DNA of 63,796 bases from Phocaeicola plebeius (GTDB lineage Bacteria; Bacteroidota; Bacteroidia; Bacteroidales; Bacteroidaceae). The notes below the pieces were generated by a model. It was not told the DNA's origin and did no database searches. It was given only the letters and a program-made list of their open reading frames with translations. Location of the stretch: the NCBI RefSeq assembly GCF_003437535.1, contig NZ_QSQT01000024.1, positions 1-63,796 of the forward strand. The letters are read 5' to 3'. A program made the translations under genes and the position numbers. Positions within the stretch are counted from its first letter, which is position 1. Every line of letters begins with the position of its first letter. Below are positions 24,084-25,430 of this stretch, in pieces.

Positions 24084-24103
24084 TTTGAAATCTTAGGGAT
24101 AAC
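24084..24103 (+). repeat. 20-bp inverted repeat, plus-strand copy (cassette 2)
   Basis: TTTGAAATCTTAGGGATAAC here is exactly the reverse complement of 24454-24473. The repeat is in frame with both coding modules (Phe-Glu-Ile-Leu-Gly-Ile-Thr). The bases on each side differ, so the identity is confined to 20 bp. Confidence 0.95.
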
Positions 24104-24251
24104 TGATAGAGGAAATGAATGGGGGTTAAAAACCAAAGAATATATCATCTCTGACACTCCTAATTGGGCAGATTTGAATCGGAGAGGTGCTATCTGGTAT
24201 AATGGCTCCTTAACCTCAACATATGCTCGATTACTCATTCGCAAATTATAA
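24084..24251 (+). other. Silent C-terminal cassette 2 of the methyltransferase
   Basis: From the repeat onward the plus strand reads FEILGITDRGNEWGLKTKEY and continues to TSTYARLLIRKL, then TAA at 24249-24251, 55 residues. The first seven residues are identical to the active module and the end (YARLLIR) is nearly so; the middle differs. The stop overlaps the convergent stop of the active gene (24246-24248). Inversion between the 20-bp repeats would give a 374-residue methyltransferase with this C terminus. A free ATG at 24075 could in principle start a 58-residue peptide, but this looks accidental. Confidence 0.9.
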
Positions 24252-25430
24252 TCCGATATGCCTGATAAGAACTCTTGCATATACTTGAGTGTAATACTTC
24301 CCATCAACTATATAATAAGTCTCATTCTGAGGAATTTGTGGATGATGCAATACAGCCCCGTCATTGAGCTTTGTTACTTTGCATTTTTTCCCTTGACGGT
24401 CAACTTGGATTTGTTCGGGATAAATTTTAGAAGCACTTCCAAACCATGTCTTTGTTATCCCTAAGATTTCAAATTGCTCCGGACAATATTTGTCCAAAAA
24501 GGAAATGGGAACCCCCATAACGCCATCATAATCTGAGGGAATGGCATCTGTAAAAGGAACTTCTATGGCATCGTAATTATCATAATGATCATAAGAAACT
24601 TTCCCTTTTATCTCTTTGTGCTTTGAAAAACGAAGATTGTCCGCCATGGTCATCAAAGGAAGCGGTTCATGACGCCGCCCATGGTCTATGTTAGTAAACC
24701 ATCGTACGCCTTTTACCCTAATAAACTTTCTCCCATTCTCATCAATTCTCCATCCTGCCGCATTCAAAGGATACTCATCGGGGACTTCAAATTCCCTATC
24801 TCCACTATGAATAGAATATCCCATCCACATTTTATTTTCTTTAATTAAAGGGAAAGTTTCTTTGTATGTTACAGCATTCATATTTCCGATGATAATGAAC
24901 TTTTTATTAGCTGAAACAATCCAAGCTAAAAATTCTCGAAAGAGAGAAAATGGAGGATTAGTAATAATAATATCTGCTTCATCACGTAATTCGGAAACTT
25001 CTTTGCTTCTGAAATCACCATCTCCATTAAGATATTCCCAATGCAAATCATCAATGTTTATTCTTCCATCACCAGATAAGTCTTTATCAAGAATGAATAT
25101 CTTGCCCTTTGTTTGAGCCTTTGAAGGGTCAAATTGTGGAGCATCTGTTTCAAACAAAGTGGGTTCAGACAATAGTCTCATTTTCTTTGCATCTGGTGCA
25201 TAGCTTGTAGAAATCAACTTTTTCAATCCAAGTTCATCGAACTTAGCGGCGAAATAACGGGTAAAGTTACTCCATTCGGGGTCATCGCAAGGTAATAAAA
25301 CAGTCTTTCCCCTAAACACGTTTAGGTCATATTCAAGATATGCATTCATTTCCACTTCAATGTCGTGGAATTGAGTATAGAATTCATCGTTTTTAGCTGC
25401 CTTCGCTTCCTTCAAATTACTATTTGCCAT
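24246..25430 (-). CDS. EcoRI-type adenine-specific DNA methyltransferase with switchable C terminus
   Basis: The 394-residue protein belongs to the EcoRI methylase family (PF13651): the start region KNDEFYTQFHDIEVEMNAYL, the SAM-site segment VLLPCDDPEWSNF (44-56) and catalytic motif IV NPPF at 158-161. It should methylate adenine N6 in a specific DNA site. Residues 320-394 (FEILGITKTW ... YARVLIRHIGL) begin exactly at the 20-bp inverted repeat 24454-24473. Two alternative modules with the same ends but different centres lie silent in inverse orientation at 23902-24251. The variable part is inferred to be the target-recognition region. The small HTH gene is 27 bases upstream and probably controls it; the DUF262-HNH gene follows. 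Confidence 0.9.
   Translation of the reverse strand: MANSNLKEAKAAKNDEFYTQFHDIEVEMNAYLEYDLNVFRGKTVLLPCDDPEWSNFTRYFAAKFDELGLKKLISTSYAPDAKKMRLLSEPTLFETDAPQFDPSKAQTKGKIFILDKDLSGDGRINIDDLHWEYLNGDGDFRSKEVSELRDEADIIITNPPFSLFREFLAWIVSANKKFIIIGNMNAVTYKETFPLIKENKMWMGYSIHSGDREFEVPDEYPLNAAGWRIDENGRKFIRVKGVRWFTNIDHGRRHEPLPLMTMADNLRFSKHKEIKGKVSYDHYDNYDAIEVPFTDAIPSDYDGVMGVPISFLDKYCPEQFEILGITKTWFGSASKIYPEQIQVDRQGKKCKVTKLNDGAVLHHPQIPQNETYYIVDGKYYTQVYARVLIRHIGL
24454..24473 (-). repeat. 20-bp inverted repeat, copy inside the active methyltransferase gene
   Basis: Read on the minus strand this is TTTGAAATCTTAGGGATAAC, encoding Phe320-Glu-Ile-Leu-Gly-Ile-Thr of the methyltransferase. Together with 24084-24103 it bounds a 350-bp invertible segment. 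Confidence 0.95.

What the first reader, a model, noticed from the sequence alone, without database searches (positions are those of the whole stretch)
24084..24473. 20-bp inverted repeats define an invertible 350-bp segment that swaps the C terminus of a DNA methyltransferase
TTTGAAATCTTAGGGATAAC at 24084-24103 is exactly repeated in reverse complement at 24454-24473. One copy lies inside the active EcoRI-type methyltransferase gene (Phe320 onward); the other opens a silent module on the opposite strand in the same reading frame. Flipping the segment changes the last 75 residues to a 55-residue alternative without a frameshift. A chance 20-bp repeat in frame at two homologous positions is not credible. 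This is a phase-variable switch of methylation specificity outside the well-known type I hsdS shufflons.
Basis: partly seen in the sequence, partly recalled or inferred. Interest (0 to 1): 0.95.

Follow-up and report, generated by a model that had tools for sequence, protein, structure and literature searches.

The report
Tail-swapping switch on a DNA methylase
Bacteroides-group gut bacteria carry a short DNA segment that lies in opposite orientations in two strains of one species, giving the same DNA-methylating enzyme a different tail; the flip is likely driven by a neighbouring recombinase and is predicted to change which DNA sequence the enzyme marks.

Summary
The 20-bp inverted repeat contains a 13-bp core, TTGAAATCTTAGG, present three times. 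It opens the active 75-aa tail of an EcoRI-family adenine methyltransferase and two silent in-frame tails (55 and 59 aa). The next genes encode a GmrSD_N/HNH protein matching a type II restriction-enzyme model and a tyrosine recombinase.

Relatives show the inversion. A genome of another family has the window's segment inverted at the repeat. Two Phocaeicola massiliensis strains, 99.6% identical over 11.9 kb, hold it in opposite orientations, and one lacks a 116-bp cassette core-to-core. Nineteen loci carry the recombinase (at least 64% identical): 16 show the core, and 14 have an intact methylase plus an inverted tail, with six tail classes active. Of 53 testable relatives, the 6 with the recombinase all have inverted tails; none was detected in the other 47.

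Identical methylase bodies carry up to four tails, and restriction enzymes 99% identical accompany unrelated tails. The tail is therefore predicted to be the target-recognition part, perhaps for both enzymes. Changed methylation, recombinase action and switching rate are untested. I class it as a new variant of a known kind: a shufflon on a type II-like system.

The parts
21716..22669 (-). Tyrosine recombinase, 317 aa, predicted to act at the core sites
   Evidence: Phage_integrase PF00589 99 bits and SAM-like N-terminal domain; motifs TGMRIGE, HGLRHT, LGHS, LYVH can be read in the ORF (the catalytic-residue rule is recalled).
22708..23880 (-). Putative restriction enzyme, GmrSD_N + HNH, 390 aa
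   Evidence: PF03235 77.9 bits and PF01844 32 bits; PADLOC REase_II model 307.8 bits, residues 11-390.
23899..24078 (+). Silent tail B, 59 codons (VEILGQTQGD...), the outer cassette
   Evidence: Opened by the core at 23900-23912; same tail class is active in L007, L076, L077.
23900..23912 (+). Core site 1, TTGAAATCTTAGG (outer)
24084..24251 (+). Silent tail A, 55 codons (FEILGITDRGNEWG...)
   Evidence: ORF 24075-24251; the active tail in G187/L074.
24084..24103 (+). Left arm of the 20-bp inverted repeat, holding core site 2 (24085-24097)
24454..24473 (-). Right arm of the 20-bp inverted repeat, holding core site 3 (24460-24472), inside the methylase gene
24085..24472 (.). Segment between cores 2 and 3, inverted in G187
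   Evidence: Window 24084-24475 aligns inverted to L074 at 96.7%.
24246..24473 (-). Active tail, codons 320-394 plus stop (FEILGITKTWFG...), predicted target-recognition part
   Evidence: silent in L009, L014, L017, L104.
24246..25430 (-). EcoRI-family adenine methyltransferase, 394 aa
   Evidence: PF13651 451.2 bits, cut-off 26.4; NPPF at 158-161 invariant in the 56 aligned sequences.
25458..25808 (-). Cro/C1-type HTH protein just upstream of the methylase, possible controller
   Evidence: PF01381 39.1 bits; related gene upstream in some carriers, not in all.

Best explanation
This locus is a shufflon in which inverted cassettes replace the C-terminal tail of an EcoRI-family DNA methyltransferase in frame, a process likely driven by the adjacent tyrosine recombinase and predicted to change which DNA motif is methylated. 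Shown by comparison: the segment between two 13-bp core sites is inverted between related genomes and between two strains of one species; the bases before the core stay with the place while the tail moves; cassettes are present or absent core-to-core; and six tail classes occupy the active position in different loci. Inferred: the recombinase acts at the core; the tail is the target-recognition part; and, because the restriction gene does not change with the tail, the nuclease likely takes its specificity from the methyltransferase or needs no matching site of its own.
For: Exact inversion in G187 and between two P. massiliensis strains. Nineteen recombinase-bearing loci, 16 with the core, 14 with an open methylase frame and an inverted tail. 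Recombinase and inverted tails go together in 6 of 6 testable positives, and no inverted tail was detected in 47 negatives. The core is exact in 10 of 10 recombinase-positive rows (9 distinct loci) against 1 of 75 others. The 14-mer TTGAAATCTTAGGG lies only at this locus in 7 of 7 genomes that hold it, of 11 asked. Identical bodies with different tails in 9 of 13 groups. Silent tails match fixed tails of relatives. Tail and nuclease uncorrelated once the body is accounted for.
Against: No reads and no methylome. L011 has the exact core without the recombinase. Three recombinase-bearing loci lack core and methylase (L147, L151/L162, L163). The silent tail of L110 has a 4-base gap near its end and reads on in another frame. 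One tail of L149 looks out of frame. Few structural matches reach the tail, so its contact with DNA is untested. In the closer nuclease clade the partial tail-nuclease correlation is 0.104, p 0.086.
Confidence: 0.78

Rival explanations
1. The inversion is real but slow: tails are exchanged on an evolutionary time scale (RecA-dependent recombination or occasional recombinase action), a store of allelic variants rather than a phase-variable switch.
For: No read-level evidence of mixed states was available; one silent tail is damaged in L110 and one looks decayed in L149; tails also differ among relatives without the recombinase.
Against: Opposite orientations in two strains 99.58% identical; contigs of three assemblies end at the core, in G412 on both sides; identical bodies with up to four tails.
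Confidence: 0.15
2. The tail is not the target-recognition part; swapping it changes something else, such as a surface seen by phage inhibitors or contact with the nuclease, and the methylation motif stays the same.
For: Nucleases 99% identical accompany unrelated tails; tail function is untested and few structural matches reach it.
Against: Tails have conserved ends and unrelated middles on one conserved body and follow the catalytic motif, the place of the recognition domain in methylases of this motif order (recalled). That nucleases ignore tail type also argues against the tail as a nuclease-specific contact.
Confidence: 0.18
3. The neighbouring recombinase is a passenger and a recombinase elsewhere in the genome flips the segment.
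For: Recombinase relatives occur without the methylase (L151/L162, L163); in Bacteroides fragilis one serine recombinase, Mpi, serves at least thirteen regions (passage in PMC5903667).
Against: Recombinase present in 6 of 6 testable loci with inverted tails and not seen at 55% identity or more in the 47 others; it follows the restriction gene in the carriers where both are complete; the 14-mer is private to this locus; cousins lie by type I hsdS genes.
Confidence: 0.12

Closest known systems
Inverting type I restriction-modification systems (hsdS shufflons, e.g. SpnD39III; PMC7394358 and PMC4190663, the first seen in passages, the second in a listing)
   Same: Inverted repeats, silent alternative specificity segments, a recombinase gene in the locus, recombination swaps recognition parts; the recombinase's cousins at 40-52% lie by hsdS genes in 4 of 10 loci inspected.
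   Different: No hsdS: the exchanged part is the C-terminal tail of the methylase itself, the nuclease is a separate GmrSD_N/HNH protein, and the site is a 13-bp core encoding part of FEILG.
Pneumococcal tvr locus (SpnIV), excision-reintegration (PMC6265443, passages)
   Same: Direct repeats allow cassettes to be lost or moved; here a cassette differs core-to-core between L009 and L110.
   Different: Type I hsdS; there direct repeats drive the switch, here inversion is seen as well and no circle was looked for.
Specificity change by movement of recognition domains in Helicobacter pylori (types I, III and IIG; PMC7379913, passages) and a frameshifting type IIG switch (mentioned in PMC6265443)
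   Same: A methylase body keeps its catalytic part and exchanges its recognition part.
   Different: Described there as gene conversion or frameshifting, not as site-specific inversion with a dedicated recombinase; IIG has methylase and nuclease in one chain.
Plasmid R64 pilV shufflon (recalled, from no call)
   Same: Constant N-terminal part with interchangeable C-terminal tails, inverted by a local tyrosine recombinase.
   Different: A pilin, not a DNA methylase.
Gene-altering programmed inversions surveyed by Milman et al. 2023 (seen only in reference lists) and BREX pglX inversions (recalled)
   Same: Inversions that change the end of a coding sequence.
   Different: The survey is not held here, so I cannot say whether this methylase family is already in its tables.

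Membership tests
EcoRI-family adenine DNA methyltransferase (PF13651) | Profile match above the curated cut-off with an N6-adenine catalytic motif | tested here: met
   451.2 bits against 26.4; NPPF at 158-161 invariant in 56 aligned sequences.
Inverting type I restriction-modification (hsdS shufflon) | hsdS gene with target-recognition domains being exchanged | tested here: not met
   Pfam scan of the five proteins at 19992-21164 and 21716-25808 shows no Methylase_S or HsdM.
Inverting type I restriction-modification (hsdS shufflon) | Inverted repeats, silent alternative segments and a recombinase in the locus | tested here: met
   shared working principle only.
Shufflon (multiple alternative segments at one expressed site) | More than two segments with inversion sites, and different ones expressed in different isolates | tested here: met
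   Three tails in the window; six active tail classes over 14 loci; opposite states in two strains.
Phase variation | Reversible switching at high frequency within a clonal population | not testable with these tools
   No reads; contig ends at the core in three assemblies are only a hint.
Type II restriction-modification | Methylase with an adjacent separate restriction enzyme | tested here: met
   PADLOC MTase_II 312.9 bits and REase_II 307.8 bits; cleavage itself untested.
Type II restriction-modification | Nuclease and methylase each recognise the same site independently | not testable with these tools
   Indirect evidence against: the nuclease does not follow the tail.
GmrSD type IV restriction enzyme | GmrS (DUF262) domain plus the GmrD nuclease domain PF07510 | tested here: not met
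   GmrSD_N found, but the nuclease part matches HNH PF01844; PF07510 is not among the hits.
Tyrosine recombinase | Phage_integrase catalytic domain with the R / HxxR / H / Y residues | tested here: met
   PF00589 99 bits; TGMRIGE, HGLRHT, LGHS, LYVH read in the ORF; the residue rule is recalled.

The most novel reading that the evidence does not exclude
A two-protein type II-like restriction-modification system that reprograms the target of both its methylase and its nuclease in one DNA flip, because the exchangeable tail of the methylase is the only recognition part and the GmrSD_N/HNH nuclease reads DNA through it. The tails form a shared pool of interchangeable recognition modules that spreads among gut Bacteroidales with a recombinase taken from the type I hsdS family.
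Probability: 0.4. Interest if true: 0.92.

Novelty: new variant of a known kind. Interest (0 to 1): 0.8.

Why it matters
In the passages I could read, specificity switching by recombination is described for type I systems, while type II phase variation is said to be limited or mostly on-off, because methylase and nuclease would have to change together; a type IIG enzyme is the named exception (PMC6265443, PMC13076061). A type II-like pair whose methylase tail is exchanged while the nuclease stays the same makes that problem directly testable: either the nuclease takes its target from the methylase, or it avoids self-damage in another way. It would also give gut Bacteroidales a predicted switchable methylome, and offers a natural set of exchangeable tails on one methylase body.

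Tried and rejected
Rejected: (a) chance repeat. (b) Tail variety only as old divergence: bodies exactly identical over their whole length carry different tails in 9 of 13 groups. (c) A cell-wide invertase with many sites: the 14-mer TTGAAATCTTAGGG is found only at this locus in 7 of 7 genomes that have it; 4 of the 11 genomes asked (G001, G412, G519, G621) have no exact 14-mer. (d) The locus as a fixed part of the chromosome: in G001 about 1.3 kb lies where the window has 5.9 kb.

Limits of counts: the 184 homologous proteins are the best 120 of each of two searches (7999 scored in each), chosen by likeness to the two window-type tails. Two duplicate loci (L075, L050) were dropped before the Mantel test and other duplicates were not checked. 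Three classes of truncated tails were dropped before the final pair counts (before dropping, 662 of 1308 pairs). The 75 recombinase-negative rows include loci too short to show the recombinase; the strict count is 53. 'No inverted tail in the 47' rests on a library of known tail classes and a repeat scan.

Full report
Observation. Its right arm covers codon 320 onward of a 394-aa methyltransferase on the minus strand. The protein is an EcoRI-family adenine methylase (PF13651, 451.2 bits against a cut-off of 26.4) with an intact NPPF motif, invariant in the 56 aligned sequences. The left arm opens an in-frame 55-codon tail. A third copy of the 13-bp core TTGAAATCTTAGG, at 23900-23912, opens a second silent tail of 59 codons in tandem. 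All three tails begin with [F/V]EILG and end near YAR[V/L]LIR; their middles are unrelated. The next genes on the minus strand are a GmrSD_N + HNH protein matching PADLOC's REase_II model over residues 11-390 (307.8 bits) and a tyrosine recombinase of 317 aa with the usual catalytic motifs.

Inversion seen directly. In genome G187 (same order, another family) the window's flanks match in direct orientation (94.4% and 84.5%) while 24084-24475 matches inverted at 96.7%; there the 55-aa tail is on the methylase and the 75-aa tail is silent. Two strains of one species give the cleanest case. Phocaeicola massiliensis DSM 17679 (L009) and TSDC17.2-1.1 (OY725995, L110) are 99.58% identical over 5236 + 6673 bp, but a 394-bp segment is inverted (98.2% identical) and the other tail is active. 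L110 also lacks a 116-bp tail cassette that L009 carries between two directly repeated cores; likewise G187 lacks the window's tail B core-to-core. So both inversion and cassette gain or loss have happened at the core. The bases before the core stay with the place while the tail moves: CAAT on the methylase side in the 15 loci where it can be read, and AAG at the outermost far site in 14 of 16 (L014 has TGG; G412 reads AAGCAAT), which puts the exchange inside or at the core (L161).

A family of switches. After removing duplicates recognised by contig, 19 loci carry a recombinase at least 64% identical to the window's. Sixteen show the core. Of these, 14 have an open methylase frame and at least one inverted tail (one search confirms the frames), one (G412) breaks at the core on both sides, and one (L161) ends within the silent tail. 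Three (L147, L151/L162, L163) have neither core nor methylase. In the 14, the active tail belongs to one of six classes (KTW type 7, DR type 2, ATESEG 2, RADAN 1, RNRG 1, MCENED 1), and five of these classes are also silent in some other locus. L017 shows the arrangement expected after inversion at an outer site: the outer tail active, the middle tail now in forward orientation, and the KTW tail silent at the far end. L014 and L149 hold four tails. Many tail classes are also the fixed C-termini of relatives in which no recombinase was seen, so silent tails are real methylase ends.

Link to the recombinase. Of 53 genome-contig loci in which the restriction gene and at least 1.1 kb beyond it can be read, 6 have the recombinase and 47 do not at 55% identity or more (three of these 47 have a 32% hit). 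All 6 have inverted tails; none was detected in the 47 by a repeat scan and a library of known tail classes. The core at codon 320 is exact in 10 of 10 recombinase-positive rows (9 distinct loci) and in 1 of 75 others (L011), although 16 of those 75 also encode FEILG: the DNA letters, not just the residues, are kept where the recombinase is present. L002 fits as a decayed copy: body 96% identical, early stop, core with two mismatches, no recombinase. In 7 of the 11 genomes asked, the 14-mer TTGAAATCTTAGGG occurs once per strand and only at this locus; the other 4 have no exact 14-mer. Cousins of the recombinase at 40-52% identity lie beside type I hsdS genes in L127, L129, L130 and L131, 4 of 10 loci inspected with 20 chosen neighbouring proteins. 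It is therefore likely a type I-style invertase placed on a type II-like system. By genome, the recombinase was found at E 1e-60 in 11 of 393 genomes drawn from the order (only G187 and G412 at 90% identity or more), at E 1e-110 in 8 of 399 of the family and in 0 of 395 of the phylum.

Is it active now? There are no reads. Contigs of three assemblies (L005, L040, and G412, whose C10 contig is L013 by its length) end at or inside the core; in G412 the contig from the methylase side and the contig from the nuclease side both end there. Six genome-contig loci end inside the gene at all, three of them at the core. A 13-20 bp repeat alone would not normally break an assembly (general knowledge), so this hints at mixed orientations. 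Among 184 homologous proteins plus the loci, 239 entered the pair count after dropping truncated tails: 606 of 1251 pairs with bodies at least 99% identical have different tail classes, and 9 of 13 groups with exactly identical bodies have more than one, two groups having four. These proteins were picked by likeness to two tail types, so the proportions are not population frequencies.

The nuclease does not follow the tail. Over 73 loci, distances of body and nuclease correlate at 0.84, and tail and nuclease at 0.24, which falls to 0.031 (permutation p 0.21) once the body is taken into account. For the 64 loci without a recombinase seen it is 0.015 (p 0.40), and for 40 of them in the closer nuclease clade 0.104 (p 0.086), so a weak link there is not excluded. 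Nucleases 99% identical accompany unrelated tails (L003/L024; L033/L031), though 2 of the 4 non-switching pairs at 95% or more share a tail. Among those 64 loci, 14 of 57 pairs with tails at least 65% identical have nucleases under 50% identical. If the tail sets the methylation motif, a nuclease with its own fixed site would cut the cell after each switch. The most economical reading is that the nuclease recognises DNA through the methylase or acts only on some state the methylase creates. This is inference.

Mobility. The stretch that aligns between the window and the G187 region held is 21699-25709 and no more, and in the nearest held genome G001 about 1.3 kb lies where the window has 5.9 kb between flanks 93-96% identical. 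The module is therefore probably acquired.

Known and new. Specificity switching by inversion is well described for type I hsdS (PMC7394358, passages) and by excision for tvr (PMC6265443, passages). Texts read in passages give type II phase variation as limited or mostly on-off, with a type IIG exception, and domain movement for types I, III and IIG in Helicobacter (PMC7379913, passages). A Bacteroides fragilis-group methylome paper has no hit for 'inversion' in its main text (PMC10333322), and an inverton survey of gut isolates names the type I S subunit and has no hit for 'methyltransferase' (PMC11892184). I found no paper on this system in ten searches, but the most relevant survey (Milman 2023) is not held. 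I class it as a new variant of a known kind: it works like a type I shufflon but is not a member, because it has no hsdS.

Noticed in passing
L125-L134 (recombinase cousins at 40-52% identity): Four of ten of these loci have type I hsdS genes beside the recombinase (L127, L129, L130, L131), and L131 has a 558-bp perfect inverted repeat nearby; they look like inverting type I systems.
   Followed up: partly
L149:4864 (minus strand): The fourth cassette of G522 reads as an unusual 47-residue frame without the usual ending; it may be frameshifted or decayed.
   Followed up: no
L011:7001-8149: Bacteroides faecalis carries the exact core at codon 320 but no recombinase or inverted partner was seen: a remnant or a site waiting for cassettes.
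   Followed up: no
L022:9097-9243: A second tail-like stretch of the QTQGD class lies in direct orientation downstream of the methylase, before the restriction gene; the contig is too short to look for a recombinase.
   Followed up: no
window 19992-21164: A predicted AAA-ATPase (PF09820, 251 bits) lies next to the module; similar DNA occurs at several places in the nearest genome G001.
   Followed up: no
L034, L046, L053, L057: The same methylase plus GmrSD_N/HNH nuclease pair, without the switch, is found in Lacticaseibacillus and in records named Patescibacteria, Zambryskibacteria and Saccharibacteria.
   Followed up: no
window 29030-29140: A roughly 110-bp stretch just before clpB matches many scattered places in genome G001 on both strands, as an interspersed repeat would.
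   Followed up: no
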